Below are positions 11,469-64,000 of a stretch of DNA of 64,000 nucleotides, piece by piece. Where the stretch lies: NCBI GenBank assembly GCA_963922205.1, contig CAWUHX010000133.1, forward strand, positions 372,001 through 436,000. Reading direction: 5' to 3'. Made by a program: the position numbers and the translations under genes. The number at the start of each line of letters is the position of its first letter. Positions within the stretch are counted from its first letter, which is position 1. The notes below the pieces were generated by a model that was not told the DNA's origin, searched no databases, and saw only the letters and a list, made by a program, of their open reading frames with translations. This DNA comes from Romanomermis culicivorax (lineage: Eukaryota; Nematoda; Enoplea; Mermithida; Mermithidae).

Positions 11469-11469
11469 T

Positions 11470-16228: not shown

Positions 16229-16411
16229 GCGCTCAATGATGAGAACTCCTTAAAATTACATGTACAACATATTTAATTATAAATAGGTGCACATTATATT
16301 ACCTCTAATTTTTGCCATAAGTCGTATTAAAAATAATTCAAATGATGCTGGAGACATTGGAAATAGGACTGCTTGTCTACAGGTACTGATGAGTGAATAA
16401 GAGCTGGCAGA

Positions 16412-16939: not shown

Positions 16940-17014
16940 AATAGAAGCAACTTATCAGTAGATGTTTATAAAAGAAAATGATCCAAGCTGACAAGTTGAT
17001 GGCCTATATATCTT

Positions 17015-17609: not shown

Positions 17610-17658
17610 TTTATTAAGCATATAAAACAAATGAATAAGCAAATTAACACATCAATAT

Positions 17659-45807: not shown

Positions 45808-47781
45808 TCAAGGCTTTCGAGGGTGAGGAGGGGTGGGGGCAGTTTCGATAGGTGATTCTCGAGGGTAAAAAGGGGTTGTCTTGTTTACATGTACCGTAAA
45901 TGTGATATTCTTATGGGGGTGTTTGAGTGTAATGTTGGGGTACATGAAATTTGTGACTGTATAGGGCCCGTTTTGACGAGGGAGGAATTTGGGAGTCCAC
46001 CCTTGTTTACACGAATGATTTTTGTAGAGAAGGAGATCACCTGCCTTGTAATGGATATTTTGAGCATGCTTGTTATACTGAAGGGTATAGTGATCTTGGG
46101 CTTTTTGCAAGTTTTTCTGTATGGTTGAGAGTGCTTCTGTAAAGTGAGATTTTACATGAAGGGCATAGTCGTCTAAATCAACCATGTAGGATGTGGGGAA
46201 AAAATTTAAAGCTGTGTCTGATGGAAGATTAGCCTGTCTACCATGGAGTAATTCAAATGGGGGATACGAAGTGCTATCATTCTTGTGAATGTTAATCGAA
46301 AAAACAGCATAGGGTAGATAAGTATCCCAATCAGTGTGATTTGAATTGATGTACATGTGGATATGGGTGGCTAGGGTCTGGTTGCAATGCTCAACTTACC
46401 CATTGGCAATGGGACGGTATGGGGTAGTATGAATTTTTTGAGTATTGCATAAACTGGTGATCCGTGAAAAGAGATCAGATACAAAATCAGAGCCACAGTC
46501 ACAGTGGATGATTTTTGGGGAGCCATGACGGCAAACAATTTTGATTATGAATAATTTGGCGATCGTGGCTGCAGTGATATCAGGGGTCGGAAATGCCTCC
46601 ACATATTTGGTGAAATAATCGATGAAAACGACAATGAATCGGTTGCCGTCTTCAGTTAGGGGTAATGGCCCCATGCAATCAACACCGACTCTATCAAATG
46701 GGCCAGTTGGCTGAATTGGTACCAAATTCGCATGTATTTTGTGCCGGAGGGCTTTTTGTGTCTGGCATGGGTGGCAAGTTTTGCAATAACGTTTAATATC
46801 ATGGCTCATTTGGGGCCAAAAATATTTCTCCTGGAGCAAGTGTAAAGTTTTCCGGGCAGAGAAATGGCCTGTGAATTTGCTGTCATGATGTGAGGTGATG
46901 AGATGCTGGACTTGTGACTTGAGGATGTATAGTTTTGCCTGTTTGTTGACTATACGGAAGAGAATGTTTTGACGCACTGGGAATTGGATCATAGTAAGGG
47001 GGTGTTTTTTGGCGATTTTTGCTGAAATACTTTTGACTGTTGCATCGGTGCGTTGAAGTTCAGCAAAATTTTTCTGTTGCTCTTCTTGTTCAGTTGCTTC
47101 AGCCTCAAGAACAGAATTGATGGTGGATATTTCAGGGCGGGTTTTGAGTTGCTCAATATCAAAGGATTGCTTCGCTGTCTCTGAGGGGAAACTAGAAATA
47201 GCATCTGCAGCGCGGTTAGCAGTGCCTTTCTTAGGTCGAATGTCTAGCTGAATACCCGAGAGGGCTAATCCCCAACGGGCAATGAGAGGGGACGGGTTTT
47301 CCTTCTGTAAGACTGCCTGAACTGCAGTATGCTCAGTGTGTACAATAACATGTTGCTGGAAAAGATAGGGGCGGAAATACTTGACAAACTCAACTACTGC
47401 AAGGGTTTCCAACTCAGTTATTGGGTAGTTGCCTTCTGCGTGTTTCAATGTGCAGCTCCCAAAAGTGATGTGGCAATCCTGACCTTTACTGTCTAGTTGG
47501 CTGAGAATGGCGCCCATTCCAAGTTTAGAGGCATCAGTTTGCAGAATGAACAGTTTGGTGAAATCGGGATGCTGCAGTATCGGGGCATGAATGAGCAATT
47601 CTTTGAGTTTAGTGAATGCGTTTTGCTGTTCGGGCCCCCAGCAAAAATTCCGAATTCTTTTTGAGTAGAGCTGTGAGAGGGCTAGAAATTTGGGAGCACT
47701 TCGGGATGAATCTGAGATAATAGGAGGGTAGACCAAGGAATGATTTAACTTCTTTGGAGGTTTTGGGGGTGGGGATGTCAT
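45808..47781 (-). pseudogene. pol: Gypsy-B RNase H and integrase
   Basis: One frame with a single stop near 46394. RNase H: LQTDASKLGMGAILSQ (first Asp), ELETLAVVEFVKYF (Glu), VHTEHTAVQAV (usual TDH reads TEH). Integrase: zinc domain with HHDSKFTGHFS and CKTCHPCQ, first Asp GVDCMGPLPL, second Asp IHCDCGSDF, third residue Glu just beyond the stop (ANG-stop-VEH). C-terminal GPYTV motif near 45970. The integrase inserts the cDNA; the catalytic triad appears retained. The frame ends 32 bp from the LTR, so nothing is encoded after pol in this element. Confidence 0.85.
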
Positions 47782-48890
47782 AAATGGTTTGTACCTTATT
47801 GGGGTCTGGTGAAATGCCTTGCTGAGAAATGATGTGGCCTAAGTATTGGACTTGGGGCTGGCAGAATTTGCATTTTTGTATGTTTAGTTTAAGGCCTGCT
47901 TGTGAGAAATGGGCCAGAATAGTGTCTGAACATTCCAGCATTTGGGCATGGGAGTCTGCGAAGACTAAAACATCATCGAGATAGACAAGGCATGTGTTCC
48001 ACTGCAATCCCGAGAGGATAACATCCATTAACCTTGGGGATGTGGCTGGAGCGTTGGTGAGACCGAAGGGGAGATAGTTAAACTGATATTGTCTGGCGGA
48101 GCAATTAAAGGCAGTTTTCTCCCTGTCTGCTTGTGCGATTGGAATGGAATAATAGGCATTGGATTGGTCAAGGGAGGTAAAATATTTCATTCCACGTAGG
48201 GTGTCTAGAATTTTGTCTATGTGGGGCAAGGGGTAGGTATCTTTTTTGGTTACCTTATTGAGGCCTCTAAAATCAATGCATAAGTGATGGCCACCATCTT
48301 TTTTTGGGGACTGAAACTGTGTTGGTGCACCATGGAGAATTGCTCTGGCTTATGACACCTGCTGCTGTGAGTTGCTCAACTTCTGCTTGTATGATTTGCT
48401 TTTCTTTTGGGGAAGTCAGAAAAAGGTGTCTACGTATGGGTTGGGAGCCATTGGTGTCAATTGTATGTGAAGCAAGGGCGGTTCTACCTACGTCCATTTT
48501 GGATTTAGCATATAATGTAGGATACTTCGATAGGGCGTGTAGAAGTTGAGTTTTTTTGGTTTCTGTGAGGTCACTGGAGGTTAAATTAACATTTCCTTTT
48601 AACCATGTGAACGCATCAAAACGGTTTGGCTGGTTTTGCGTGGAGGGGGTTACTTTAGCAGAAGCGTCTTGTTTTGGGATGTAACATGAGACGGTACTGA
48701 TGCATGTTCCAGGGTAAAGAGTTTGGGCTGTGTCTTGCGTGTTTAATACTGATATGCATATGCGACTGTTTCGGTTCTCAGAGACACAAGCTGCGAAATG
48801 AACTTTGGCATTCTGTTTGGGTTTCGGGGTAAATTCTAGCTGTTTAACTTGTAGGTATGATTTGGGCAAGGGGACAGTAAATTAAGTTAC
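47600..48890 (-). pseudogene. pol: Gypsy-B reverse transcriptase, frameshifted
   Basis: The upstream part (48869-48273) contains the linker and the start of RT (VISQSNSPWCTNTVSVPKK). After a shift near 48290 the frame 48229-47609 carries FTSLDQSNAYYSIPIAQ (motif A), LPFGLTNAPAT (motif B) and YLDDVLVF (motif C, catalytic Asp pair near 47970). Typical Ty3/Gypsy RT order. Another shift near 47620 leads to RNase H. It copies element RNA into DNA. Confidence 0.85.
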
Positions 48891-49515
48891 TGTATGGGGT
48901 GGTAATTCTAATTTTTCATCTAAATAAGTTCCACCATGGGTCGAAAGGGGGCTCTATTCTAGGCCGTCACAAGGTAGTATAAGATTGCCAAATTTGACCT
49001 GGGATTTCTGATTGTTGATAGTATATTCCAAAAATCCACTGAGAAAGTTTTTGTTTAGAAGGACGTCTGCTGTGCAAGCTTTTTGTACATGGACCATTAT
49101 GGTTTCCTGAATAGTTTGTGGGCTGTTACTGTAAGAAAAGTCGTTCCTACAAAGTGAATCGGAAGGTTATTTGCTGCTTTGGCTTGGACTAGCGGGGATT
49201 TCATGTCTAGCTGTAAGATTTGAGTGATTCGTGAATCAATGAGTGAGTATACGGCACCAGTGTCAATCATGCCTTTTGTAATTAGCTTGCCATTAAGTGT
49301 GATTGGAATGTGAGGGGTATGTTCCTCAGGTACATTCTGGGGTGGCTTGTTTGATCCAGATTGGTGAATTTGATTAATGAGTTTGATTGCAGGAGTTCTG
49401 GGGATATCAATATCGACAAGGACGTATTTCTGCTGCCTTTGTGCCCCAGGACGATTAGCTAATTCTAGGAGAGCATGGCTGACTGATGGGGGAATGGTCT
49501 CATGTAAACGTCTGT
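48890..49515 (-). pseudogene. pro: Gypsy-B retropepsin
   Basis: Frame opening near 49515, overlapping the end of the Env membrane-anchor frame. The active site is GMIDTGAVYSLID near 49240-49275, with the canonical D-T-G-A intact. Preceded by about 80 residues without a clear domain. Stops appear before the RT frame. The step from the Env frame to this frame is at 'cagacgtttacatga', so either a frameshift signal or an indel lies there. Confidence 0.75.
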
Positions 49516-51375
49516 TGTGTGATGGTATTTCCTACGACCTGTTGCTTTGGGGAAGGGAAATATTTTTGAAGAATGAGAAAAGAGTAAAAGACGCCTGCCA
49601 TAACTACAGTAATAACGGCTAGATTAATAATGATTTGCAGGGGTCCTTTGAGTAAATTATTTAATCCGTCTGTGAGGCTTTGGGTGGTACTGGTTATTAC
49701 ATGTTCAATGCCTTGCCGGGCACCAGAGAGGGTATTTCCGATTGCTTGGCCACTGCCTGAGATCATATTGTAAACTGTATCTGAGTTAAGGGACATTTGG
49801 GTGGTGTAATTGACGAGTTTTTAACAAGGTTTTCGAGTGTGTGAGTTTTGTAAATGTATTGTTTCAAATTGTCGAAATTGTTGTGAGTTGATCATGAAAA
49901 ATTGGAGGTGTGTTAAAATGGAAAAGGGAGAAATTTTGGTTCCAGACGATTTCTAACGGTAGATCAGTGACATGCGGGGATCCTGTTTCACTGACCCATG
50001 TGTTATTCTGTTTGTAAAGGGCTACATGCATGTGATGGCAGTCAATGGTTTGTGAGAAAGGGGTCAAATGGTTTCCTTCTGGGTTCGAAAACATGAGTTT
50101 GGTTCCTACGAGAATGGGTAAAAGTTTGTAGCATGTTTGGTTGATTTTATGGTTGTAAAAGACTTCAGATGCGTTTACCTGTTTACAGGGCCAGACTGTG
50201 AGGGCTTCTCCTGTGAATTCTGCTATTATGTCAGTTCACTGTACGAATGCGCGCGCCCCAAGGGTTGCATCAAGGCGCAAAATTTGTCATACTAGATCAA
50301 GGTGACGCTGTGCCTGTCTGCATAATTCACTCCATATGTTTTTGAAATTTTGGATTTCGAATTCCTGGATTTTGTCTGCTAGATAGTTTAGTTTTGCATT
50401 AATGGGTTCAAAATCATCAAAATCGTATAGTGTAGTGTGAGTTTCATTGGTTTTCGGGGTTAAAAAGGTGTTAGGATGTGGGGTGCTTTTATCTAGCTGG
50501 ACAACAATGCCCTGTTCCGTTAGGACACTGTCTTGGATTTCTGGGCAGTTGGGGTTCGAAAAGAGTGTACTTTTGACTGAGAATGCACCTTGTAGCTCTT
50601 CTATTATCATGTGGGTTTGCGTCAGTTTTATGGGATGTGTATTTTTGTATTCGAAGGGGCATACGTTTTCAAATGTTGTTTCATTCCAGATAATGGACCC
50701 GTCGGTCGTTACACAATAGCCTGATGTTGGTTTGCATGACCCCAGGTCACCTAATGTACCTGTCATAGATTTTCCATTCCAAGACGCTATTTGTCCTATT
50801 TCTATGATGACCTTAGTGACCGACGTACAGTGGTCTGTACAACACCATGTGTATTATACGCTTAGGGAGTTGTTTGTTGACCAAACTCCTGGTTGAGTTT
50901 CGTATAATTTTTGACTGTTGTGTTCTTTGTCGATAACGATTGCCTTACAAACATGCAGGGTTAGATTTTGCATTTCGGTTTGGTCAAAGACAATACCTTT
51001 TGAGCCAAAAAATCCTGTATTAGTACAAATTTTCCATTTGCGAACACTGCATTTGTATGCATCTGTAATGTGAGGTTTAATGGAGGGGATATAGATTTTT
51101 CCGAATGTCTGTACTGGTTTGTCTACTGTGGAAGGGGGCATGCATGATACAAGTTTTGGTATGCTGACTGAGTGACCGCTCAATGAAGTTCCACAGATCT
51201 GAAATTGGGCACTACACGATGTGGGGATTATTATACAAAGAAATATACAAAACATCCCCCAATACAATGTTTTAGTGGAGGCAGCGGGGCACTGTATTTT
51301 TTCACTCTGGCCGGTTTGGCGTGGCGGCTGTTGTTGTTTTGTGATTTCGAACTGAGGGGGTGGCCAGTTTGTCAT
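49500..51375 (-). pseudogene. env: Gypsy-B envelope-like glycoprotein, between gag and protease
   Basis: Starts [13 protein letters not shown] (51375). A hydrophobic leader (about residues 36-58, [18 protein letters not shown]) is followed by a Cys-rich ectodomain with KICTNTGFFGSKGI, a W-C-C block, SIIWNETTFENVCPF, IIEELQGAFS and, near 50240, DATLGARAF; C-terminal membrane anchor LQIIINLAVITVVMAGVFYSF (about 49640-49570). The same frame continues through stops at about 50860, 50285 and 50220; the anchor is in a shifted frame. The matching protein in Gypsy-C shares these blocks. Family not proven; not baculovirus-F-like as in errantiviruses. Resemblance to mononegavirus/chuvirus-type glycoproteins is only a suspicion. 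Described as an old, broken copy. Confidence 0.75.
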
Positions 51376-51451
51376 CTGAACAGTCTGTAAAACTTTAGAA
51401 GTTGAGTCATGGGATGGAGTTTGGATTTGCTTACTTGTGGGGGTCGGTAAT

Positions 51452-51455
51452 AATG
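51452..51455. repeat. Left target-site duplication of Gypsy-C
   Basis: aatg, identical to 62533-62536 on the other side of the element. Confidence 0.8.
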
Positions 51456-52074
51456 TGTGGGAGCGCTAAAAATCAATCAATAAAGATCGCCGTTGAGCAA
51501 CCTACAGTAAACAGCGATGCTTTCACCGTCGCGCTTATGTCAGGCAAACCTACGTTATCCAATCCTACTGTAGACATCGTGCCAAGATTCTTTGTTCACG
51601 TAACCTAACTTTTTTTATTTTTATATGACTACGCTTATTAAGATTATAATCTAAGATTGTATGAAACTATGACGTCAATGCTTAGTTTTTATGTCTTTTT
51701 ATTTATATATAAACGCTTGTTTTGTATGTTAAAATCACTTCAACATTTTATTAATAAATTCGGCTTACCTGCTTTCTCTGCTCTTCACCATCGTCGTAGG
51801 GTCACTGGATAAATCGTCATTTGTTCCGTCCGGCTTTTGCGACCATTGGAAGCTGGAAGGAATATATTTTCGTTGCGAGACTAAGATTTTCCTTTTACTT
51901 ACCTTGGCGTTTTCCTAAATCGTCGCCGTTGCCGCCCATCCTTTGACATTTTCGTTGATGATTCTGAAGAAGAAAGAATAAATTGAAAACATTTTAGTAT
52001 TCAGTCTGATTTGCAGGTTATTCAGCTACAGTAATCTGTATTTTCCATTGACCTAAAAATTGACAAACCTTACA
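51456..52074 (+). repeat. 5' LTR of Gypsy-C
   Basis: 619 bp, identical in length to 61914-62532. Contains a cAMP-response-like palindrome TGACGTCA (51670-51677), a TATA box tatatataaa (51704-51713) and an aataaa signal (51753-51758), in the order expected for U3 promoter and R/U5. Confidence 0.93.
51670..51713 (+). promoter_or_regulatory. Gypsy-C LTR promoter: CRE palindrome and TATA box
   Basis: TGACGTCA at 51670-51677 is the consensus CREB/ATF site; the TATA box follows at 51704-51713. In the 3' LTR the palindrome reads TGACCTCA, so only the promoter-proximal 5' copy keeps the consensus. Factor binding is inferred from the motif only. Confidence 0.55.
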
Positions 52075-52076
52075 AG

Positions 52077-52092
52077 TGGCGAGGCTGGCAGG
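52077..52092 (+). other. Candidate primer-binding site of Gypsy-C
   Basis: TGGCGAGGCTGGCAGG begins two bases after the 5' LTR. TGG at this place matches the complement of a tRNA CCA end. The tRNA was not identified. Confidence 0.5.
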
Positions 52093-52395
52093 ACCGTCGA
52101 CTACAATTTTCGGATTGAATTGACATTGAAGAAGCCTGAAAATAAAGAAGAAATAAAGGAGCACGAAGGCCGACGATTTTATTTGGCAACTTACTTGGCG
52201 TTTTTCGAATTTTTTGAGCCTGACGATTTTTCTTGAAGAACGGCTGAAGAAGAAAATTCACTTTTTTCGATTTTTAATAAAATAATCGCCCGCGCTCGCC
52301 AGAATCCTACAGAACACCGACGAACTAGAAGTGGACGACCATTATTTGAACATGCACCACCAGAAGAAAATTTAGAAGAAGAAAATTTACAAATT

Positions 52396-53952
52396 TTGGC
52401 GAATCAAGAAGATCAAGTTTTAGTTGGAAATAGAGACATAATGGCTATGGAAGAAATCAACGATTTGCTACGAAATACAGTGGCTCGAGTTACAGAACCA
52501 TATGAAACCCACCCGACGATTCCCACCGGTCTAGGTGATCTATCCCCATTTGCTGGCGACCCGAACCATTTAAATTGGTCAGAATGGGAAAGAAAATTTT
52601 CGAGATTAGCGATTTTGGCAGGTGCTACAGCCCTAAGTAGAAAAACGGCCCTGCTAGCAAATTATTTACGAGGCGCTGCACTCAATTATTTTGGAGAATT
52701 AGAAGCAAGACAACCACCTTTGGCTGACTGGGATGCATGGACTGGTGCTTACCTAGCCAAGTTTCCCCATAATCGCCAAATCGACGTCAAATATGAGCAG
52801 CTGGTTGCTAGAACGCAATCGTTGGGAGAACCCATGGCCGTTTTCGCCGCTGATGTCCGTCACTTAGCCAAACGAGCTTTTCCAACCTGGAACGGAGCCG
52901 AAGAACCTGATATAATTATTAAAAATCATTTTATAAATCGACTAATACCTGACATTCGTCATTGGGTCCAAAACGCCGAACTGGATTCATTCGAGGCCGC
53001 CGTTGCTGAAGCTGAAAAACAAGAATTACGAGAAAAACAATATCACAGTGAAAATAACCCTTCGTTTCAAGTTTTGGCGAATTCCGTCAGTCAGCTGACA
53101 AATTTAGTGCAACAGTTGAGTGCTGTCAACCTAGCTGGAAATTCGAATTCGGAAAGAAGACACGAACAAAGGACAAATCAAAATACTAATTTCAACAGAT
53201 GGCCATGGCAAGAAAATCGTTTTTGGCCTAGGAACAACGCGAGAGATTTTCAGATTCAATCGAACAGTCCCCAAGAGTCCAACAGGATGGGAGGTCGCCC
53301 AAATCCCGCGATAAATACCAACTTTAACCGCAGCCGCCCGTCAGGAAGGTCCTCAGATGGTACCGTTTCTTGTTTTAGATGTGGTAGAAGTGGGCATTAT
53401 TCTTCTACTTGCCCCATGCTTGAACGAAATCAAGATTCCAGATTTTTGAGTTCCCCGCGTAGCACATGGCGTGGTGGACCGCCCCGAGTACAAATGCCAG
53501 CCCGAGGCGTTTCGAACCCTAGGAGTCCAGGAGATGCCCTTTCTGGAACCCGAGGAGTCAATAGTCAGCTTTGCCTTGCCGAGGCTAATGGGCCCAACGT
53601 GTCAGAATTTAATCCTGACACCATCGCAGAACAGTCCGATCCCTGGAATTGCGATGATTTTGATCTGTTAGGAAATTCCAATGTGAGGCCTCAGGCACAT
53701 GTTTTTATGGCCCGATATAATGAATTTTATTTTGGAACAGGACACTCCACATTGGTGAGTAGTGGGACAGGATCTGAAGAAATTAGCGATAATCCCACTA
53801 TTGCCTCCCATGGGTATACTGGCAATTATTATGAAGCCCCAGAACACTTAGAAAACGGTTATTTAGAAAATGGTTCAGACAGAACCTCTGATTTTGATGA
53901 AACTTCTGATTTCGACTATTATGAAGATAGACGGCGCCCGTCAACGATTTGA
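52396..53952 (+). CDS. gag: Gypsy-C Gag (capsid and one zinc knuckle)
   Basis: Intact frame to the TGA/TAA region at 53952. The frame is open upstream to 52237 without an ATG; the first ATGs are at 52441 and 52447 (MAMEEIN), so translation probably starts there or after splicing from the LTR. A capsid-type helical region (WSEWERKFSRLAILAGAT ... YLRGAALNYF) covers residues 40-240, a Gln/Asn/Arg-rich linker follows, and one CCHC knuckle CFRCGRSGHYSSTC lies at 53371-53412. A long acidic C-terminal tail (about 170 residues) after the knuckle is unusual. Gag assembles particles and packages RNA. The adjacent env frame begins about 200 bp downstream. Confidence 0.88.
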   Translation: MANQEDQVLVGNRDIMAMEEINDLLRNTVARVTEPYETHPTIPTGLGDLSPFAGDPNHLNWSEWERKFSRLAILAGATALSRKTALLANYLRGAALNYFGELEARQPPLADWDAWTGAYLAKFPHNRQIDVKYEQLVARTQSLGEPMAVFAADVRHLAKRAFPTWNGAEEPDIIIKNHFINRLIPDIRHWVQNAELDSFEAAVAEAEKQELREKQYHSENNPSFQVLANSVSQLTNLVQQLSAVNLAGNSNSERRHEQRTNQNTNFNRWPWQENRFWPRNNARDFQIQSNSPQESNRMGGRPNPAINTNFNRSRPSGRSSDGTVSCFRCGRSGHYSSTCPMLERNQDSRFLSSPRSTWRGGPPRVQMPARGVSNPRSPGDALSGTRGVNSQLCLAEANGPNVSEFNPDTIAEQSDPWNCDDFDLLGNSNVRPQAHVFMARYNEFYFGTGHSTLVSSGTGSEEISDNPTIASHGYTGNYYEAPEHLENGYLENGSDRTSDFDETSDFDYYEDRRRPSTI

Positions 53953-54154
53953 AAATTCTGGGCAAGTCGAATCAGTTAATGTTTTCATGAATACGGCTCA
54001 GACTGGAGGTTCTAATTCCGACCGTCCCTCTGGAAGCCGCCCCATGGGTGAAGTTTATTTTATTTTGAATGGGCCTGCTGCAGCCAGTATTTGTAATTTA
54101 TGTAATATTTTGAATTGTATGCATATGCAAGAATTTGGAAGCCGGTCACGATGA
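53870..54154 (+). other. Gag-env junction with an overlapping small frame
   Basis: A 94-codon open frame overlaps the Gag end by 83 bp in a different frame and stops four bases before the env frame opens. It contains no known domain. It could be a short extra protein, the start of Env through a frameshift, or chance. Confidence 0.3.
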
Positions 54155-54157
54155 GGA

Positions 54158-56350
54158 GTGATCGCTAGACAAGGACCCTTGGAATTTATGACAGAAGGAT
54201 GGATCAATAAGTCGATACCATGGATTGTTTGGAGGCCCGAAGTCACCTCCCCAGAAGATCCCATGCGACATCAGTCAGCTCAAACTGACTCAAGAATGGA
54301 TCCAAGAAGGCTAGAAGATTTACAATTTCAATTTAGAGCAGAAGCAGTTCAAAGAAGCAGAAAATGTAACAGAAGAAGAGTTCCTCAACACCATTTCCAA
54401 GGAATTCTTAGAAATTTAGTTTCACTTACCTCTTCTTATTTTTTGTTTGCCGCCGTATTGTTACTTTCTTTTGTTGTCGGCTATTCGTTCGGCGAACCCT
54501 TTTATGAATGTGGCGCTTCACGAGGCGGTCGTGCTTTGATGGTTCCGATCATAGCTGAAAAACGTGAAATAAATTTGCATATTTGGTCCACGAATGGACA
54601 TTTGAATCAAATTATAGCCGTTCGATGCGTTTTATGAAACCGAACCATTTGTACAAACACAGGAGTTTTTGGATCCCGAGGAATTGTATCCGATACCACT
54701 TTGCAGAACATTGTCACTCCAGGTTTATGCAGACAAGTTTGGTCTGATAAAAGCTATATGGGACGCAATTTAGCAGAAATTCAACCTGGAATTTGGACCA
54801 CGAATCAGACGTTGCAAGTAGAATTCAAGTGGTGCTGCAAAGATACTTGTCGATCAGTTCAGAATTTACTCATGGAAGTTGGGACGATAGCAGCTGTTGA
54901 TCACAAAGTAACTATCAGTGATCTCGGAGACACTGGTGGTTGTCCTCCTGTTGCTGGACAATGTTTGAACGCTGGAGGAATGATCATTTGGAACGCCACC
55001 ACCTTCGAGAATTATTGTCTATTGGCTCTAGTAGGAAATTTCACAGGACACATCCTACAAGATCATGTGATAGTGGAAGAAGTTCAAGGAGCTTTTCAGC
55101 TCTCCGCGACAATTTCTACGTGTCATCTACAAAACGCTTATTCCACTGAGCAAGGACCTATTCTGCAGTTCGAAGAAGATGTTCATCAACTTTTGGCCGA
55201 TCGAGACACATCAAATATCAATCCTGGATCACTCGAAAAAGATCCTATGAATTCGAAATTTCAGTTTTTATACGACAAAATGATCCAGCAAGAAAATCGA
55301 ATTTTCCAAACTATTTGGACCGAATTATGTCATTCTTCAAAACAACGTTTAGTGATGATTTGGCAACTTTTGAAACTCGATCCAACTCTAGGAGCCAGAG
55401 CTTTACTTATGCGAAATGATATTATCGCCTCCTTTGCGGGTCAAGCTCTCATGGTTTAAGAATGCGAAAGAATCGTACCAGATCATATATTTTGGGACTA
55501 CCAAGTTAATCAAACCTGCTACGCCTATTTGCCAATTTCATTCCAAGATCACACACTTTTTGTGGTTCCCGGAACGAAGGATGTGATTGGAACGTCGCCT
55601 GTTGTAGATTGCAATCACCATGTGGTTGGTATCTATTACGAAACAGGAACTGGATGGAGAACATCTACTGGCCCAGTACACCTTGCAATGATCCCTTACG
55701 GTATCCAGTGGCAAGGCAGAACTAAGTTGCAAACTTTCAATACGCCTTCCTATTTTCACGATCAACAAGCTGGCGTTTTACACACTTTTGGCCTTATGAG
55801 AAGCTATTTTTCCAAAATTTCGATCCTTGAAAGCGCTTTGAACTGACTCACATGATATACAGCAGAACTATTGTTGGATCCAACTGTGGTGTATCAGACT
55901 TTGGCTGGTACAGGGAAGATGGTAGCAGAAATCACGGAAGGAGCCGCCAACTCGTTGGAACATATCAGCACTACAGGCGTGAAGAATTTGGTCACTACTA
56001 CAGATTATTTGATTTCTGGCCCCCTACAACTCATTTTAAATATGCTCATTGTCCTAGCAGTCCTAATCATTTTACTTTTGATAGGATATTTCGTTTTTCG
56101 TCATTACCTCAAAGCAAGGATTGGGAAATGTTTTGGCTGCCGAGAGGATGATCGTGAACCATTTGTTCGATTTTCTGATTTGCAAGAAACGGAAAGAGGA
56201 AATGAAGAACAGACGCGAAACGAACATGCCAATTCCCCATCATCTGAAGTAGCTTATTCTACCATGTTGAAGAAAGCTTTTTCGCCTTGGCTAAGTCGCA
56301 AAACTTCATCAAAAGACGAATCTTCGACCTCGAACTGTAGTATAAGACTC
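54158..56350 (+). pseudogene. env: Gypsy-C envelope-like glycoprotein, upstream of and in frame with protease
   Basis: One reading frame from 54158 through the membrane anchor, broken by four stops (TGA 54637, TAA 55459, TGA 55846, TGA 55855). A hydrophobic leader lies at about 54430-54490 (SSYFLFAAVLLLSFVVGYSF). The ectodomain has TICTNTGVFGSRGI, KWCCKDTC, MIIWNATTFENYC, IVEEVQGAFQ, KLDPTLGARALL and N-glycosylation sequons. A strong anchor, LQLILNMLIVLAVLIILLLI, at 56021-56101 is followed by a Cys-containing cytosolic stretch (RIGKCFGC). Blocks match the Gypsy-B Env, so these are the same protein family. Role would be membrane attachment and fusion. This old copy is interrupted and described as such. 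Confidence 0.78.
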
Positions 56351-57148
56351 AGCACCCAACCGACTCAAGATCGATGCCCCACCATTGATGTATGGTTGAA
56401 CGAAGACGTAGAAGAACCCATAACTACATTAGTCGAGAGTGGTTCAGATATCTCCCTTATTGGCTACAACTTAGCGATAAAAAGAGGATTTCAAATACTC
56501 CCCCCGATGATCAAAAGTTACAAGGTTTTTAATAGTCAAACTGCGGAAGTTATGGCTTCTTGTTGGGTTAGAATCTCACTTACAGTGGAGCAAAATTTGT
56601 CCTCACTGCCCGAATTTCTTCGAGTACATGTAGTCAGGAATTCCACCTATGATTTGCTATTGGGAACTGATTTCTTACGACGATTTGCAAAAACCGAATT
56701 ACATTGGAAAGCCGCCCGTATCGATTTTGGTTCAATCACCGTACCCATGAAGAATCCGAAAATTTTCCTACCCGATACCACCCGAGGAATAGTATTCCTG
56801 GCCCAGACAGTAGTCATTCCACCCCGAACTATTAATTTTGTGGATGCCCAGCTAGAGATGCCTTACACCCGATTGAATTCGTTGATTTTTGAACCCTTGT
56901 CAAAATTTGTACTCCGTTTTCACCTACAAGTCGCCTCCAGTTTAGTCAAACCCGACAATGGACTTATTCCAGTCAGCATTCTCAACACTACGGAAAGCCC
57001 TATCACCCTCTATCAAGGAATCAAAATTGGAAAAGTTCGAGCCTATCAGATTTGTATTCTGATCAACCAACATCCTGCCATCAAAGAGTTTGTTTCTCTC
57101 AAGATTTTTGTGACAAGAATGAAGAAGAAAAGGCCGAGATTTTGTTAG
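56351..57148 (+). CDS. pro: Gypsy-C retropepsin, fused behind the Env anchor
   Basis: Continues the Env frame without a stop from 55871. After an acidic/Ser-rich tail of about 95 residues, the active-site block reads TTLVESGSDISLIG: the usual catalytic Asp is Glu (codon at 56435, GAG), followed by S-G-S-D. The second block, YDLLLGTDFLRRF near 56650-56690, is canonical. The Asp-to-Glu change would be expected to impair a retropepsin unless this subfamily tolerates it. The frame overlaps the RT frame by about 97 bp (57052-57148), suggesting programmed shifting or an indel. Confidence 0.8.
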   Translation, partial: STQPTQDRCPTIDVWLNEDVEEPITTLVESGSDISLIGYNLAIKRGFQILPPMIKSYKVFNSQTAEVMASCWVRISLTVEQNLSSLPEFLRVHVVRNSTYDLLLGTDFLRRFAKTELHWKAARIDFGSITVPMKNPKIFLPDTTRGIVFLAQTVVIPPRTINFVDAQLEMPYTRLNSLIFEPLSKFVLRFHLQVASSLVKPDNGLIPVSILNTTESPITLYQGIKIGKVRAYQICILINQHPAIKEFVSLKIFVTRMKKKRPRFC

Positions 57149-58110
57149 CAAATCCTGAACTTCAGAGTGATATAAAAGAAGCTCACCTGACTGATGTCCA
57201 ACATCGCCAATTTTTCGGTCTTCTGGCCCGCTTTTCGACTTTGTTCGCCACCGACCACGATCTTGGACGAACCACTTTGGTCGAACATCAAATTGAAACC
57301 GGCGACAACGTCCCCGTTCGACAAATTCCGTATCGAGCACCCTATAAACAAAAAGAACAAATAAACGAAGAAGTTCAGAAAATGTTAGACAAAGGAGTTA
57401 TCACTCCGTCTCAAAGTCCATGGGCCAGTCCAGTCGTCTTAGTGCCCAAGAAGACGGGAGGATTTCGTTTTTGCATCGATTATAGGAAACTAAATGCCGT
57501 TACCAAAAAGGATAGTTATCCATTACCTAGAATTGACAATATTTTTGATGCTGTTCAAGGAGCTACTCTATTTACCTTAGATCAAGCTTGGGGCTATTGG
57601 CAGATACCAGTTGCTCAAAAGGATAAAGAAAAAACAGCATTTATTACCCCTAATGGCCTTTACCAGTTCGACGTTGTTCCTTTTGGTCTTTGCAACGCCC
57701 CTGCGACTTTTCAAGGACTAATGGACCTCGTTTTGAGCCGGCTCCAGTGGTCGACTTGCCTTGTTTATCTCGACGACGTTTTGATCTTTGGTCGAACGTT
57801 CGACAAACACCAATCGCGGCTGGACGAAGTCTTTCAACGTTTGCAGGCTGCGGGTTTAAAACTTCGCCTGGAAAAATGTCATTTTCTAAAATCGAAAATT
57901 GCTTATTTAGGACATGAAATCTCAGCGCAAGGAATAAAACCAGACGAAAACAAAGTTAGCAGCGTGAAGAACTTTACACCACCAACAAATATTGATCAAT
58001 TACACAGCTTTTTGGGCTTAGCAAGCTATTATAGACGTTTTATACAAGATTTCGCGAAAATTGCCTATCCCCTACATTTTCTACTAAAGAAAGCTCAGAA
58101 ATATGAATGA
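57052..58110 (+). CDS. pol: Gypsy-C reverse transcriptase
   Basis: Open frame ending in a TGA at 58108-58110. Palm and finger motifs are in order: VVLVPKKTGGFRFCIDYRKL, TLFTLDQAWGYWQIP (motif A Asp kept), VPFGLCNAPATFQGLMD (motif B), CLVYLDDVLIFG (motif C near 57760) and FLGLASYYRRFI. Ty3/Gypsy type. The terminating TGA stands exactly at the conserved Trp before 'TNACQQAFDTLK', and the next frame continues without change of phase, so RT and RNase H were one polyprotein. Confidence 0.9.
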   Translation: MYSDQPTSCHQRVCFSQDFCDKNEEEKAEILLANPELQSDIKEAHLTDVQHRQFFGLLARFSTLFATDHDLGRTTLVEHQIETGDNVPVRQIPYRAPYKQKEQINEEVQKMLDKGVITPSQSPWASPVVLVPKKTGGFRFCIDYRKLNAVTKKDSYPLPRIDNIFDAVQGATLFTLDQAWGYWQIPVAQKDKEKTAFITPNGLYQFDVVPFGLCNAPATFQGLMDLVLSRLQWSTCLVYLDDVLIFGRTFDKHQSRLDEVFQRLQAAGLKLRLEKCHFLKSKIAYLGHEISAQGIKPDENKVSSVKNFTPPTNIDQLHSFLGLASYYRRFIQDFAKIAYPLHFLLKKAQKYE

Positions 58111-58140
58111 ACGAACGCCTGCCAACAAGCTTTCGACACG

Positions 58141-60216
58141 TTGAAAGAAAAACTAACAACTGCGCCACTGCTGATTCATCCAAATTTTCATGCACCTTTT
58201 ATCTTATATACAGACGCTTCTAATGAAGGATTAGGTGCCGTTCTATCTCAAAAAACAGAAGATGGAGAAAAACCTATCACGTATGCCAGCAGAAGTTTGA
58301 CGAAAGCAGAAAAAAACTACGCAATTACAGAACAGGAAGCTTTAGCCATAGTTTGGGCAGTAAAATATTTTCGTCACTATTTGTATCAGCAGCGCGTTAC
58401 TGTTTTCACGGATCATTCAGCCTTACAGAGCCTTTTTTCAAAACCAAACCCTTCCGGTCGTATAGCTAGATGGGGACTAGCATTACAAGAATTTCAAGAA
58501 CTCAACATCAAACATTATGCCGGAAAAATCAACAAAAATGCGGACGCTCTTTCAAGAAATCCAGTATGTGGAGAAAACGACAAGAAAGGCGTAAAATTTC
58601 ACATAAATGCGATTACGCGCTCACAAACTTGTAAAACTAAGCCAAACGACTCAATCTCCGTTATAGCAGAAGCAGGTTCCGAAAAAACATCGACTATAGC
58701 AAGAACTAGTCTAGATGAAACTCAAGCCACACGCTCAAAAACGCCTGATAACCTATTTCCAATTCAAGAAGACGTGAATTTTGAAGAATTTCCAACTATA
58801 GGAAGAACTACTTTCGAGAAAACTCGAACTATAGTCACGGAAAAGGAAGAAAATGAGTTCAACGCGAGTAATATGAACGACTTTCGTAAAGCACAAAGAA
58901 GTGATCAATTTTGTAGTCAACTATTAGCTTATTTACAGTCTGACTACCTGCCTGAAGATCTTAAGCAAGCCAAGAAGATTGTTTCACTAGCATCCCAATT
59001 TACGATAAAAGACGAAATTCTATATTATTTGGGCGATGCAGACGAAAACGAACTGAAAGTAGAAGTTCCAGTTTCGAAGAAAGAAGAAATTTTAGAAGCT
59101 TGCCATGATGACGTTTTTTCTGGACACTTTGGTTTTACGAAAACATTAGCAAAAATTCGCTTATGCTACCATTGGCCTACAGTATACCGCGACGTACGAG
59201 AACATTGCTTGAATTGTATCAGTTACAGTATGAGAAAAACGTCCACAAAAAGAAATCGCGCCGCTCTTATGCCTATACCAGTCACAGGTCCATTTGACAG
59301 AGTGGCTATGGACATTTTTGGTCCATTGCCTATAAGCGAAAATGGAAATAAATACATCATTGTATTCAGCCAATATTTAACAAAATATGTGACGGCAGTA
59401 GCTCTACCAGAAACTATGACAGAAAAAGTTGCACAAGCTTTTATGACAGAAATAGTGCTACGTTTTGGTGGGCCACTAACATTACTTTCAGATAGAGGCA
59501 CGAATTTCTTATCTGATCTAATGTTATGCATTTGTGAAATATGTGCAACGAGGAAAATAAACATGAGTCCCTACCACCCACAAACAGACAAACTAGTGGA
59601 GAGATTCAATAAAACGTTGGCTACAATTATCTCAATGTACATCAATAAAAAACACGATTGGGATTCTTATCTGCCCTACGCGTGTTTTGCATTTAACACG
59701 GCCACACAAAAGTCAACAAAGTACTCACCATTTTTTCTTCTTTTTGGCCGCCATCCAAATTTGCCGATCAACGCCGCTCTTCATTTTTCGCCGGCTTTCT
59801 ATCGAATCGATGTTGACGATTACGGCGACAACATCCAACGTCTTTTGTCCGACGCCTGGCAATCTGCCAAAGAAAACATAAAAATAGCACAGAATGGTCA
59901 GAAAATTGCATACGTTAAAAAAGAACATGGAGAAGAATTCGCAGTAGGAGAAGAAGTTTTTAAATATAGTCCAGTGGTGAAGCCCAAACACTCACCTAAA
60001 TTTACTTTTCCATGGACAGGACCATACGTCATTATTGAAAAGAAACATCCGACATATTTATTGCAACTGAAAGAAAATCCGAGCCGCCCGTACGAAAAAA
60101 TACATTTCAATATGTTGAAGAAGAAAAAAACAGACGACCATTTGTCCATGATTCAGACTTCGATTGTATCATCAGACCAGTCTCCAGAATTCTTATCTAC
60201 ATGTTTTTCCATGTGA
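58141..60216 (+). CDS. pol: Gypsy-C RNase H and integrase
   Basis: Intact 691 codons in the RT frame. RNase H: FILYTDASNEGLGAVLSQ, EQEALAIVWAVKYFRHYL, VFTDHSAL, NADALSR (all four acidic positions present). A linker with repeated 'GRTTFEKTRTIV'-like segments of about 110 residues separates it from the integrase: HDDVFSGHFG and HCLNC (zinc domain), VAMDIFGPLP (first Asp), LLSDRGTNF (second Asp), QTDKLVERFNKTL (Glu), and GPYVIIEKKHP near 60025 (GPY/F domain). All catalytic residues of the triad are present. These enzymes finish reverse transcription and insert the cDNA. Confidence 0.92.
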   Translation: MKEKLTTAPLLIHPNFHAPFILYTDASNEGLGAVLSQKTEDGEKPITYASRSLTKAEKNYAITEQEALAIVWAVKYFRHYLYQQRVTVFTDHSALQSLFSKPNPSGRIARWGLALQEFQELNIKHYAGKINKNADALSRNPVCGENDKKGVKFHINAITRSQTCKTKPNDSISVIAEAGSEKTSTIARTSLDETQATRSKTPDNLFPIQEDVNFEEFPTIGRTTFEKTRTIVTEKEENEFNASNMNDFRKAQRSDQFCSQLLAYLQSDYLPEDLKQAKKIVSLASQFTIKDEILYYLGDADENELKVEVPVSKKEEILEACHDDVFSGHFGFTKTLAKIRLCYHWPTVYRDVREHCLNCISYSMRKTSTKRNRAALMPIPVTGPFDRVAMDIFGPLPISENGNKYIIVFSQYLTKYVTAVALPETMTEKVAQAFMTEIVLRFGGPLTLLSDRGTNFLSDLMLCICEICATRKINMSPYHPQTDKLVERFNKTLATIISMYINKKHDWDSYLPYACFAFNTATQKSTKYSPFFLLFGRHPNLPINAALHFSPAFYRIDVDDYGDNIQRLLSDAWQSAKENIKIAQNGQKIAYVKKEHGEEFAVGEEVFKYSPVVKPKHSPKFTFPWTGPYVIIEKKHPTYLLQLKENPSRPYEKIHFNMLKKKKTDDHLSMIQTSIVSSDQSPEFLSTCFSM

Positions 60217-60583
60217 AGAAAGAAAGAAAGAGGAAAATAGATAAGTACTTGTATATAACGCATATTATTTTTCTATATAAGTTATTGAGAAGGCTCATTT
60301 TTATTCTTTTATTCAGTTGTGTATCCCGCCGCTTAAATATTTTTATATTCTTTCATCAAAGCATTTTCCTATATATTCTTTTTCGGTAAATTGTTATTTG
60401 TGTATTCATTTATACTTTGTTATTAACTAATTTCTACATCTGAAGAGATGCCTTTCGCGAAAATTACAACGAGGATAGCTGTTGATCGATGATCACTTCA
60501 TTTACAAACTTGACTGTCCATACAAGAATCGTTTTCCGCCGATAAAACAAGAACCTTAGGCGCCAGCTAAAATAGACAAATTA
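60217..60583. other. AT-rich spacer between pol and the 3' ORF
   Basis: No ORF supported. Could carry splice or RNA signals for the downstream ORF; none identified with confidence. Confidence 0.4.
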
Positions 60584-61348
60584 TTGTTGTCAACCATTCA
60601 TCTACAGAACCCAACGTTATACGAAGAATTTAAGCGAAATTGCGCCTCCCGTATCCCAGGAATCTACGCGACATATAGAAAAATTGATCACCAGTCAAAA
60701 ACATTCAAAAACTTCTCGATTAGACGATGCTTTGCAACAACCACCCCATTTGTTGCCGAAGAAAACCGAAAATTCATCCAAATGATGACCGAAACGCCAA
60801 CTATCTTTAAACTGAAACCGCCGCCACCGATGAGCGATGCCTCAGGAGGTAATGCCCCAATGGTTCCTCCTCACACCCGTGTATCGATGAATGAACATTA
60901 TTTGATCAATCTAACACCTGAATCTTTCTTGCAATCAGTTATACCCTCGTCGACACAAAATGCACGATTGAACGTTTCCAGTTTAATGATGGCTAGCGCC
61001 AAAGGTAAATTACCTCTATTTTCAAATGTTCCCGATTCGATTAATAATAGCTTAATCAAAGTCACACCAACTCCCGCAGTTGCCCTATGATTGCTTCCCA
61101 AGTTCCCTCAACATCATATGAGGATAAAGTCAACATTGAAGAAGCCCAAAATCATTTCATCGCAAACCCAACCTCAACCTATGATTTATCCCCGGAAGCC
61201 ATTTACGGAATCGACCGCCGCTTACATCATCTACTACATGCCGCCGTATTATACCGAAATGATGCCCACCTTCAAAAAAAAAGTTGCCGAATATCGACGC
61301 ATTTACTTACGAGTCCAATTGCGACGCGATCCCCGGTTATTACCCTAA
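60584..61348 (+). pseudogene. Unidentified 3' ORF of Gypsy-C, in the usual env position
   Basis: One frame over 60584-61348 with a single TGA at 61088-61090, giving about 254 residues (168 before the stop). The first half contains CASRIPGIYATYRKIDH, a Pro-rich LKPPPPMSDASGG and a polar stretch. The second half is Tyr/Pro/Met- and Lys/Arg-rich (YYMPPYYTEMMPTFKKK). No signal peptide or membrane anchor, so not a second Env. A second start at 61087 overlaps as ATGA in another frame (61087-61356). No family recognised. Gypsy-B has no counterpart. Could be an accessory protein acquired by this lineage. Confidence 0.5.
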
Positions 61349-61356
61349 CAAATTGA

Positions 61357-61913
61357 TGCCCTAATGGCCAAATTTTGCAATATACTTACGAGAACCGCAT
61401 CGTTCGTTGTCCTCGTCCCTAATTACCGTCAAACAATCGTTGTCATCGTCAATTAATTCGTCGTCGTCGTTTTGTTCCAAATTTTCGTCGCCCTGTCATC
61501 GAACTGTCACCAACTTTGCAATATCCTCGTAACCGTTGTCCTTTTTTGTTGAATTTTCGTCGATTTTTGTCATATATATATATGAAAAAAAACACAACTG
61601 AACACACCATCTTAAATTTTGCTTATTTACAAATTCGTAAAATTTAAATCTATGCGAAATGGGAAAATTATAAAACAGAACAGGAAAAATCATAAAGAAA
61701 AACCGGAACATAAAATTGGAAAAAATGGAAGACAAAAAAAAGCGAAGAAAATAATAACGAGAAATCTGAGGATTGGAAGAAAAAAACGAAGAACAAATTT
61801 TTACCGCCATAAAGACACTTACCCGAAAAATCCGCCCTCGATTCGCCGCCGATTCACAGCCAAAACCTTGCCAAACGAGGCTGGGGGCAGCCTTTTCCTC
61901 AGTGCCGGAAGAA
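61357..61913. other. 3' untranslated stretch before the right LTR of Gypsy-C
   Basis: Mostly noncoding, AT-rich, with 'tatatatatatg' near 61571. A Lys/Arg-rich frame (61619-61927) runs into the LTR and is probably chance. A purine-rich 'gaggctgggggcag' at 61877-61890 may be the polypurine tract, though it is not adjacent to the LTR. Confidence 0.4.
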
Positions 61914-62532
61914 TGTGGGAGCGCTAAAAATCAATCAATAAAGATCGCCGTTGAGCAACCTACAGTAAACAGCGATGCTTTCACCGTCGCGCTTATGTCA
62001 GGCAAACCTACGTTATCCAATCCTACTGTAGACATCGTGCCAAGATTCTTTGTTCACGTAACCTAACTTTTTTTATTTTTATACGACTACGCTTATTAAG
62101 ATTATAATCTAAGATTGTATGAAACTATGACCTCAATGCTTAGTTTTTATGTCTTTTTATTTATATATAAACGCTTGTTTTGTATGTTAAAATCACTTCA
62201 ACATTTTATTAATAAATTCGGCTTACCTGCTTTCTCTGCTCTTCACCATCGTCGTAGGGTCACTGGATAAATCGTCATTTGTTCCGTCCGGCTTTTGCGA
62301 CCATTGGAAGCTGGAAGAAATATATTTTCGTTGCGAGACTAAGATTTTCCTTTTACTTACCTTGGCGTTTTCCTAAATCGTCGCCGTAGCCGCCCATCCT
62401 TTGACGTTTTCGTTGAGGATTCTGAAGAAGAAAGAATAAATTAAGAACATTTTAGTATTCAGTCCGATTTGCAGGTTATTCAGCTACAGTAACCTGTATT
62501 TTCCATTGACCTAAAAATTGACAAACCTTACA
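61914..62532 (+). repeat. 3' LTR of Gypsy-C
   Basis: 619 bp, nearly identical to 51456-52074. About ten differences by hand count, mostly transitions (for example the CRE palindrome change and 'gccgttgcc' against 'gccgtagcc'). Followed by aatg (62533-62536). Confidence 0.93.
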
Positions 62533-62651
62533 AATGTTTGGCGGGGGCGGAATCTATAAGGTTCGGGGGTCAGGCTGTGGAGAAGGGACAACAGGTTACG
62601 ACCTGTTTTCAAAGGTGTATCAGGGGCCGATGGCGATTTGGTGTCCTGTTT

Positions 62652-64000
62652 TCAGGGGATTTTGTAGTCTGCCCGGATGGTGGGCGGCGATTTTTCGATT
62701 TTGGCGGCTTTGGGCGTGGGGGGTGGTGACATGGTGCACCAATCCAGTATGTCCAGGTCGAGGACGTACTCTTCCTGACTACGGCAGTGGGTGTTGGGCA
62801 TAATAGTTCCTAAAGTAGTCTTAGGGCCATTAGTTATGGCGGGTAATGTTGAGTAGAAGGCAGGGTCATCAATGTCCATTAGGGGTTGGGGTTGCCTGTA
62901 CTCAATGCAATTTTGAATATTATGACTTTGTTGATTTGGACAGTACCTACTTGTATGACCTCTCTGCTTGCATAGAAAACATTGAAGATTTGAGTAGGGT
63001 TTTGGAAGGCAGTTATCAGATCTATGTCCTGTTTGGGAGCAGTGGATGCATCAGCTTTCACAATCACGTGTACTGTGATTATTACAAAAACAAATTTCAC
63101 ATGATTTTTGGGTGCCTACTGATTTACAATTGCGAGCTACGTGTCCAAGTTGTCCACACTGGAAGCATGTGGGTTGCCTAGGGGTAGTATTGTTCCTGTA
63201 AGCATTGTTCCTGCTGAAAGTATTGTTACTGAAACTGTTGTAGTTACTCTGTTGTGGGGGTTGAGGTTTTTGTTTGATCTGCAACAGTAAATCTTTTACT
63301 TGTTGTTCTAATTGATGCAAAAGGTCCTGTTGGTCTGTATTTTTGGTTAGGGAAAAGATGGGTTCGGGTTTTGGGGGTATAAATGAAAGGGCGTTGGAGT
63401 TTAGCTCATTTCTAAGGATTTGCTGTTCAATGTAAGCTGCTTCGTCTGACATTTCTTTTAGAGTTGTGAACTGTCTATACTTAATTGCTTCCCTGATTTC
63501 GTTTTGCATGCCTTCTACAAAGAGGGGTTTTATGATCATTTCTCGTGTGTCTGTGTTAAAGTTAGGGTAGGCGAGGGTTGCGAGGTGTTCTAGATCAAAC
63601 AAGAATTCAGTTACTGTTTCTGATCACTTTTGTTTTCTCTCACGTAAAAATTGTTGATGTAGCTCATTATCTCGGTTGTTTGGGAAAAAGGCCTGCAATG
63701 GGATTTTATACTGCTTGTATGTGTTGGGAGGGTTTTCGGAATTGGCTAGACTTTTGAATTTTGCTAACGCGGCTCCTCCTAAATGAATCTCTAAACATGC
63801 CAACTTTAACTGTATGTCTGTATCTTTCATGCCTTGAAGTGCCATGAATTGTTCTAAATGTTTGTTCCATTCACCAAAATGTTGGGTCATGCCACCCGTG
63901 AATACTGTGGGTTTCGCATAAAAAATATTTGCCATGTTATTACGAATGTTTGCTGTTCTTAGATCGTCTACTAGGGTAGGGTTTACTGTATTCTGGTTCA
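62652..64000 (-). pseudogene. gag: Gypsy-B Gag with four zinc knuckles, cut by the window edge
   Basis: The frame is open to the right edge; the Met at 63935 (MANIFYAKPTVFTGG) may be internal. A capsid-like region (WNKHLEQFMALQGM; DLEHLATLAYPNF) is followed by a Gln/Asn-rich linker and four consecutive CCHC knuckles between about 63190 and 62950: CFQCGQLGHVARNC, CEICFCNNHSTRDC, CIHCSQTGHRSDNC and CFLCKQRGHTSRYC. Stops: TGA near 63622 and TGA between the second and third knuckles; other short shifts. The C-terminal Pro-rich piece ends at 62652. Gag packages genomic RNA. Four knuckles is more than the usual one or two. Env of the same element continues at 51375 beyond Gypsy-C. Confidence 0.82.

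What the first reader, a model, noticed from the sequence alone, without database searches (positions are those of the whole stretch)
45808..64000. Two related retroelements with gag-env-pro-pol gene order
Both Gypsy-B (minus strand) and Gypsy-C (plus strand, inserted in it) place an Env-like membrane glycoprotein gene between gag and protease. Retroviruses and errantivirus-like Gypsy elements have env after pol. The two Envs share several ectodomain blocks (CTNTG.FGS.GI, IIWN.TTFEN.C, D.TLGAR) but are strongly diverged, and the Gag proteins differ (one against four zinc knuckles). The order therefore predates their split and is not a rearrangement in one copy. I know of no standard LTR retroelement family with this order.
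Basis: partly seen in the sequence, partly recalled or inferred. Interest (0 to 1): 0.95.

Follow-up and report, generated by a model that had tools for sequence, protein, structure and literature searches.

The report
Retroelements with envelope inside the polyprotein
Nematode retrovirus-like elements carry their envelope (cell-entry) protein in the middle of one long protein, between the capsid part and the enzymes, instead of at the end as in known retroviruses, which implies an unusual way of making virus parts.

Summary
Confirmed and extended. The window holds two nested Ty3/gypsy-type LTR elements (C inside B), both ordered gag-env-protease-RT-RNaseH-integrase. Both copies are decayed. 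The host genome (a nematode, judged by cuticle collagens) holds relatives with unbroken frames of about 2,400-2,700 codons around env; in 10 of 10 pieces read, the frame runs from gag zinc knuckles through env, and in the 8 long enough, to RT. Of 20 env hits sampled down the ranking, 18 had gag upstream, 19 protease downstream, none RT or integrase upstream. A metagenomic protein (2,604 aa) has the whole order end to end. B and C sit on separate sub-lineages in RT and Env trees, so the order predates their split. The Env is of the herpesvirus gB / chuvirus class, under purifying selection. Best model: one polyprotein threads the ER membrane twice, with Gag and Pol cytosolic and Env luminal. 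That topology is inferred; no RNA or protein data exist here, and half of the Envs examined have a Met where a separate start could lie. No printed precedent was found, but the most relevant paper (Chary and Hayashi 2025) was not held.

The parts
51452..51455 (.). target site duplication AATG, left of element C
51456..52074 (+). 5' LTR of element C (TG...CA)
52077..52096 (+). primer-binding-site-like stretch 2 nt after the 5' LTR; no tRNA was matched to it
   Evidence: label is an inference
52237..53952 (+). Gag of element C (CCHC at 53371-53412)
54155..54637 (+). gag-env linker, signal-peptide-like segment (54425-54493) and start of Env, element C; frame differs from gag by a shift
   Evidence: (relatives)
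54638..55459 (+). Env ectodomain, element C
55460..55846 (+). Env ectodomain continued, element C (same frame, one stop before it)
55856..57148 (+). end of Env, C-terminal membrane anchor (56042-56098) and protease (catalytic motif near 56429), element C
56893..58110 (+). reverse transcriptase, element C (another frame)
58111..60216 (+). RNase H and integrase with GPY motif (60019), element C
60217..61913 (+). tail of element C after pol; the 176-aa ORF at 60560 has no Pfam match, and no match to the ORF3 of relatives
61914..62532 (+). 3' LTR of element C
62533..62536 (.). target site duplication AATG, right of element C
62652..64000 (-). Gag of element B (runs past the window end; CCHC at 63126-63167, 63060-63101, 63009-63050, 62940-62981); one frame with two stops
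49864..51465 (-). Env of element B: signal-peptide-like 51208-51258 and ectodomain; one frame broken by stops
49500..49820 (-). end of Env and membrane anchor (49578-49634), element B; frame shifted against the rest of Env
49097..49531 (-). protease of element B (weak Pfam match, below the cut-off)
47609..48349 (-). reverse transcriptase of element B
45808..47838 (-). RNase H and integrase (GPY at 45925) of element B
44895..45776 (-). 3' LTR of element B, about 450 bp longer than the 5' LTR

Best explanation
B and C belong to an env-bearing lineage of Ty3/gypsy-type LTR retroelements in a nematode. Its members encode Gag, a gB/chuvirus-class Env, protease, RT-RNaseH and integrase in that order, and in the intact relatives read they do so in one continuous frame. 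Shown: the order, the open frame from gag knuckles to RT in pieces (and end to end in one metagenomic protein), purifying selection on Env, the order being older than the B/C split, and identical LTR pairs that point to recent insertion. Inferred: translation starts at Gag; an internal signal peptide sends the Env part through the ER membrane; signal peptidase cuts before the mature Env; the anchor after Env stops transfer, so protease-RT-IN stays in the cytosol; the aspartic protease then frees Gag and Pol. Gag, Env and Pol would be made on the same membrane patch and assemble together into an enveloped particle able to spread between cells. The layout resembles the capsid-glycoprotein polyproteins of alphaviruses and flaviviruses (recalled) more than retroviral splicing.
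For: Frame: 10 of 10 fetched pieces, chosen for long frames, are open from CCHC through env; 8 of 10 reach the RT YxDD, the other two end earlier. 71 of 150 B-env matches lie in frames of at least 2,400 codons and 150 of 150 have no stop inside the env piece. The gag-env linker is open in six of six subfamily representatives (201-386 codons), against 0-8 of 5,000 random sequences of like make-up. Order test: 20 env hits down the ranking; gag upstream 18, protease downstream 19, RT downstream 18, RT or IN upstream 0. Other genomes: P0001 carries CCHC-Env-PR-RT-RH-IN with capsid-like sequence in 2,604 aa; P0024 likewise in 2,973 aa; the capsid matches of both are below Pfam cut-offs. Env class: Monjiviricetes_fusion above its cut-off; all 11 PDB matches of the Env profile at E up to 1 are gB, five of them at E below 0.01, best 3.4e-4. 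Selection: env dN/dS 0.04-0.11 and RT 0.00-0.02 in the three pairs with usable dS. Topology: two hydrophobic segments bracketing Env in 9 of 10 pieces, the first under the threshold in L006; 16 cysteines in 11 of 12 ectodomains, sequons above shuffles in 12 of 12. No start Met or splice-acceptor-like motif shared by all families. LTR pairs identical over 621 bases in one C-related copy and 600 in two B-family copies.
Against: No transcript, ribosome or protein data. In 6 of 12 sequences (L006, L008-L010, P0001, P0024) a Met lies within two residues of the start of the hydrophobic segment, so separate initiation of Env is possible there. Outside Env, sequons also exceed shuffles in L004, P0001 and P0024; P0001 has a further hydrophobic stretch just before the signal segment. 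One polyprotein would give equal Gag, Env and Pol, which retroviruses avoid (recalled). The group with this order has only moderate support (80/88, 89/87), and P0091 falls outside, though holding it inside is not rejected (p-AU 0.51). Of 20 sampled hits, two showed no gag, one no protease or RT, and one RNase H/integrase where RT was expected.
Confidence: 0.68

Rival explanations
1. The order is the same, but Env is made separately: from a spliced subgenomic mRNA (leader or Gag start spliced to env) or from an internal start; the unbroken frame serves the genomic RNA.
For: A spliced mRNA from an element without a gag-pol stop has precedent in Cer1 (PMC10309623, passages read). A Met lies within two residues of the signal segment's start in 6 of 12 sequences, and a TTTTACAG motif lies 143 nt before it in the three B-family pieces. 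dS is low in the gag-env linker of the C subfamily, which could reflect RNA signals.
Against: No such Met in L001-L005 and L007 and no acceptor-like motif shared across families. No stop between gag and env in six of six subfamily representatives.
Confidence: 0.26
2. Artefact: env between gag and protease arose by separate insertions, nesting or rearrangement in these two copies.
For: C really is nested in B and both window copies are broken.
Against: Gag upstream in 18 and protease downstream in 19 of 20 sampled hits; same order in metagenomic proteins; one open frame in 10 of 10 pieces; RT and Env trees both separate the B and C lineages.
Confidence: 0.01
3. The Env domain is a non-fusogenic membrane protein used for intracellular assembly or vesicle transfer, not for entry.
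For: No fusion or entry data; of the proteins scanned only P0001 matches the C-terminal part of the Pfam profile (positions 251-638).
Against: Purifying selection on the Env segment as a whole and match to gB over the central region.
Confidence: 0.12

Closest known systems
Errantivirus-type gypsy elements of insects and other animals (Metaviridae)
   Same: Ty3/gypsy-type RT-RH-IN, viral-type env acquired by an LTR element
   Different: env lies after pol as a separate ORF (recalled; P0103, with Baculo_F after integrase, is an example here)
Atlas virus of Ancylostoma ceylanicum and related nematode belpaoviruses (PMC9094657, passages read)
   Same: nematode host, a single polyprotein (2,828 aa) that includes Env
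   Different: order Gag-Pol-Env, BEL/Pao RT, class II phlebovirus-like Env at the C-terminus
Cer7 and Anakin BEL/Pao elements (PMC7642597, passages read)
   Same: herpesvirus- or chuvirus-type glycoprotein captured by an LTR element
   Different: BEL/Pao superfamily; the passage names Roo, Tas and Cer-7 as having the glycoprotein downstream of the polyprotein
P0122-type elements (ENA, unnamed host)
   Same: single polyprotein with a related Env and two flanking hydrophobic segments
   Different: gag-pro-pol-env order; different place in the RT tree
Bdelloid rotifer Juno/Vesta elements (PMC5408684, passages read)
   Same: DEDDy exonuclease ORF3 after pol, as in some C-lineage relatives here
   Different: no env between gag and pol in the passages read

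Membership tests
Ty3/gypsy (Metaviridae) | PR-RT-RH-IN domain order | tested here: met
Ty3/gypsy (Metaviridae) | RT closer to Ty3 than to retroviral RT | tested here: met
   136 aa of C's RT only, against the PDB only: 4ol8 (E 2.7e-22; Ty3 by recall) and 7q5b, labelled Ty3-G Gag-Pol (1.9e-21), rank above the retroviral-type Pol chains (1.8e-14 and weaker)
Ty3/gypsy (Metaviridae) | GPY/F module at the integrase C-terminus | tested here: met
   pattern match in both window elements and in P0001, P0024, P0030, P0091, not in P0122 (motif recalled)
Ty3/gypsy (Metaviridae) | TG...CA LTRs and 4-6 bp target duplications | tested here: met
   AATG for C, ACTT for B, GATC for one relative
Ty3/gypsy (Metaviridae) | place in a tree with named Ty3/gypsy clades | not testable with these tools
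   few named reference elements at hand; the tree uses mostly unnamed relatives
Errantivirus | env downstream of pol | tested here: not met
Retroviridae | gag-pro-pol-env order | tested here: not met
Belpaoviridae (Atlas-like) | single polyprotein including Env | tested here: met
   as an open frame, not as a protein
Belpaoviridae (Atlas-like) | Env at the C-terminus after pol | tested here: not met
Class III fusion glycoproteins (gB / chuvirus) | sequence relation to the family profile | tested here: met
Class III fusion glycoproteins (gB / chuvirus) | class III fold | not testable with these tools
Class III fusion glycoproteins (gB / chuvirus) | membrane fusion activity | not tested
   needs a bench assay
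DEDDy 3'-5' exonucleases (ORF3 of relatives) | match to solved DEDDy exonucleases | tested here: met
   profile of four rows: WRN E 1.5e-6, mut-7 homolog 3.6e-5, EXD2 0.0032, RNase D 0.0065, over the last motif region only; single-sequence Pfam and PDB searches found no exonuclease match

The most novel reading that the evidence does not exclude
An old lineage of infectious LTR retroelements expresses Gag, Env and Pol as a single ER-threaded polyprotein, like the structural polyproteins of some positive-strand RNA viruses. As far as I could find, this expression and assembly strategy has not been described for a retrovirus-like element: Env delivery, Gag membrane targeting and Pol packaging are coupled in one chain.
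Probability: 0.47. Interest if true: 0.9.

Novelty: new variant of a known kind. Interest (0 to 1): 0.78.

Why it matters
Gene order in retroviruses and env-bearing LTR elements is usually treated as fixed: env last, made from a spliced RNA (recalled). A lineage that keeps env inside the gag-pol frame suggests that an LTR element can carry a fusion protein without a separate gene, and makes testable how Gag:Env:Pol ratios, membrane targeting and particle assembly could work from one chain. It also couples a gB-type Env to gypsy-type elements in a nematode, with Env and RT apparently inherited together.

Tried and rejected
Rearrangement or nested insertion as the cause of the order: rejected. 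Overlapping ORF in the gag-env linker to explain its low dS: I saw no frame conserved across families; low dS stays unexplained. The window's own C tail as a decayed ORF3: no tblastn match to the ORF3 of relatives. Relatives of P0001 in viral contigs: none in one scan. A start Met or splice acceptor shared by all families: none, though half of the sequences have a Met at the segment's start. Spliced-leader search for the nematode subgroup: not completed. Structure prediction of Env: tool off.
Full report
What is there. Element C spans 51456-62532 on the plus strand with 619-bp LTRs (98.4% identical; ends and AATG duplication). It sits inside element B on the minus strand, whose LTRs lie at 44895-45776 and just beyond the window (window-equivalent 64338-64771) with duplication ACTT. 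Domain scans give the order gag, Env, protease, RT, RNase H, integrase for both (motif positions); protease matches in the window copies are weak and below Pfam cut-offs. Both window copies are broken: C by frameshifts after gag and before RT plus stops, B by the C insertion, stops and frameshifts.

Genome-wide. The window lies in a 359-Mb assembly of 595 contigs. I take the host for a nematode: 50 matches to the cuticle collagen domain Col_cuticle_N (PF01484), all over its cut-off. That the domain is nematode-specific is recalled; it rang in 0 of 14 control genomes, whose identity the call does not give. The C env piece scores 141 matches, the B env piece 150; only these of 3,184 and 2,960 candidates were scored, and the lists overlap. 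Of the B matches, 71 of 150 lie in frames of at least 2,400 codons and 150 of 150 have no stop inside the piece; of the C matches, 42 of 141 lie in frames of 2,300-5,000 codons (counted). Ten pieces picked for long frames, from several subfamilies, are all open from the CCHC knuckles through env; 8 of 10 are long enough to reach the RT YxDD motif and do. My motif pattern found the protease in 5 of those 10; Pfam found it in L007 and L008; L006, L009 and L010 were not tested separately. I did not read a whole frame of any own-genome copy through integrase.

Order test. I took 20 env matches at steps of seven down the list (one row replaced by its neighbour because I already held other parts of that copy; the window's own copy left out). 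Gag-like sequence lay upstream in 18 of 20, protease downstream in 19, RT downstream in 18, and RT or integrase upstream in 0. L046 and L048 showed no gag, L052 no protease or RT, and L058 RNase H/integrase where RT was expected.

Other genomes. A search with the env region found two metagenomic proteins. P0001 (2,604 aa) has capsid-like sequence (below cut-offs), a CCHC knuckle at 411, Env 1012-1406, protease 1438, RT 1769, RNase H and integrase. A pol search (best 120 of 439 matches listed, candidates capped) added P0024, P0030, P0091 and P0122 with the same Env class; an env-only search added P0003 of the mermithid nematode Romanomermis culicivorax (taxonomy) and P0004, filed under a bacterial assembly. 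Of the 123 P proteins, eight hold this Env: six have it before RT, one (P0122) after integrase, and P0003 holds Env alone. Of the six, only P0001 and P0024 also show gag; the other four start within or near env. P0003 is 52-53% identical to the three B-family pieces.

Trees. In an RT tree of 47 rows (thinned from 131), 14 env-before rows form one group (80/88); P0091 falls outside and P0122 lies in another lineage. Without three long-branch rows the group has 89/87; holding P0091 inside is not rejected (p-AU 0.51), and adding P0122 instead lowers the likelihood by 14 (p-AU 0.095). B and C fall in two separate starred sub-groups. In the Env tree the C side is starred (100/100) and the B side is not (87/97) but shows the same split. 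So the order is older than the split, and Env and RT appear to have been inherited together. Few rows are named, so the place within named gypsy clades is open. The nearest solved RTs are Ty3 chains (4ol8 by recall).

Env. The Pfam family is Monjiviricetes_fusion, above cut-off in a C piece (just), a B piece and the relatives scanned; other Env pieces of the two window copies had no match or one below the cut-off. The Env profile's 11 PDB matches at E up to 1 are all gB, five of them below 0.01, best 3.4e-4, over the central region. Env dN/dS is 0.04-0.11 in the three pairs with usable dS, against 0.00-0.02 for RT; in more distant pairs dS is saturated. The gag-env linker has dN/dS 0.60 and 0.78 in the C subfamily, 0.05 in the B pair and 0.30-0.39 in three distant pairs, and its synonymous divergence is low in the C subfamily; I saw no overlapping ORF that explains this.

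Topology and expression. Hydrophobic segments bracket Env in 9 of 10 pieces; in L006 the first fell under the threshold. Ectodomains have 16 cysteines in 11 of 12 and sequons above shuffled expectation in 12 of 12; outside Env, sequons are below expectation in 9 of 12 and above it in L004, P0001 and P0024. Net charge in the 30 residues before the first segment is positive in 12 of 12 and higher than just after it in 11 of 12 (equal in L003), but the residues just after it are also positive in 12 of 12; P0001 has a further hydrophobic stretch just before the signal segment. The linker is open in six of six subfamily representatives, against 0-8 of 5,000 random sequences. No start Met is shared by all, but 6 of 12 have a Met within two residues of the segment's start. 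From this I infer an internal signal peptide, a stop-transfer anchor, and Gag and Pol both in the cytosol. The comparison with alphavirus and flavivirus polyproteins is recalled.

Recent activity. One C-related LTR pair is 621/621 identical with duplication GATC, another 98.6% over 582; the third C pair could not be made. Two B-family pairs match 600/600; a third B-family copy was not resolved.

Extra ORF. Some C-lineage relatives carry an ORF after pol (605 aa in L018). Of 86 env matches compared with 71 of the 95 ORF3 matches, 15 have one downstream on the same strand, 14 at 5.0-5.9 kb and one at 2.9 kb; none upstream, none on the other strand within 12 kb. A four-row profile matches WRN, mut-7, EXD2 and RNase D exonucleases; single-sequence Pfam and PDB searches found no exonuclease match. 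Rotifer LTR elements have a comparable ORF3 (PMC5408684, passages).

Literature. A single Gag-Pol-Env polyprotein is known from the hookworm Atlas element (PMC9094657, passages). Roo, Tas and Cer-7 are described with env downstream (PMC7642597, passages). A 2023 survey saw no clear chuvirus-type glycoprotein capture by Gypsy (PMC10084718, passages). The phrases gag-env-pol, gag-env-pro and gag env pro pol gave 0 papers; other order phrases gave no retroelement with env before pol that I could tell from titles and abstract starts (20 of 33, 20 of 979, 4 of 4 and 25 of 27 papers listed). Chary and Hayashi 2025 (eLife 108449) is cited in PMC13172572 (passages) as showing env-carrying gypsy elements across metazoans; it was not held, so novelty against it is untested. 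Troyka (PMC12440569, outline and passages) has no env.

Noticed in passing
L018:173-1987, L030:1501-3315, L038:1441-3267; downstream of 15 of 86 C-lineage env matches compared: A DEDDy 3'-5' exonuclease-like ORF3 lies downstream of pol in relatives of element C; L020's version seems to have lost some motif residues (motifs recalled).
   Followed up: partly
L038 (G000:C102); L039 and L041 hold near-identical ORF3 frames: An ORF3 frame of 609 aa follows visibly decayed integrase sequence in L038: possible non-autonomous elements keeping ORF3.
   Followed up: no
window 9610-19786 (-): Maverick/Polinton-like gene set: integrase (Pfam E 7e-9), adenovirus-type protease (0.0013) and A32-type ATPase (0.0099), the last two below cut-offs; capsid and polymerase guesses are from reading only, with no Pfam match.
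   Followed up: partly
window 8557-9210 (+): Retroelement aspartic protease ORF, a further LTR element remnant.
   Followed up: no
L002 aa 126-440 against L001 and L003: Synonymous divergence is several-fold lower in the gag-env linker than in env or RT of the C subfamily, unexplained.
   Followed up: partly
G000:C371:149340-150164: An env match is reported in an open frame of 24,354 codons, perhaps a masked or ambiguous stretch.
   Followed up: no
P0122: A related Env occurs after integrase in a single gag-pro-pol-env polyprotein (33 member sequences, ENA): the usual order with the same Env class.
   Followed up: partly
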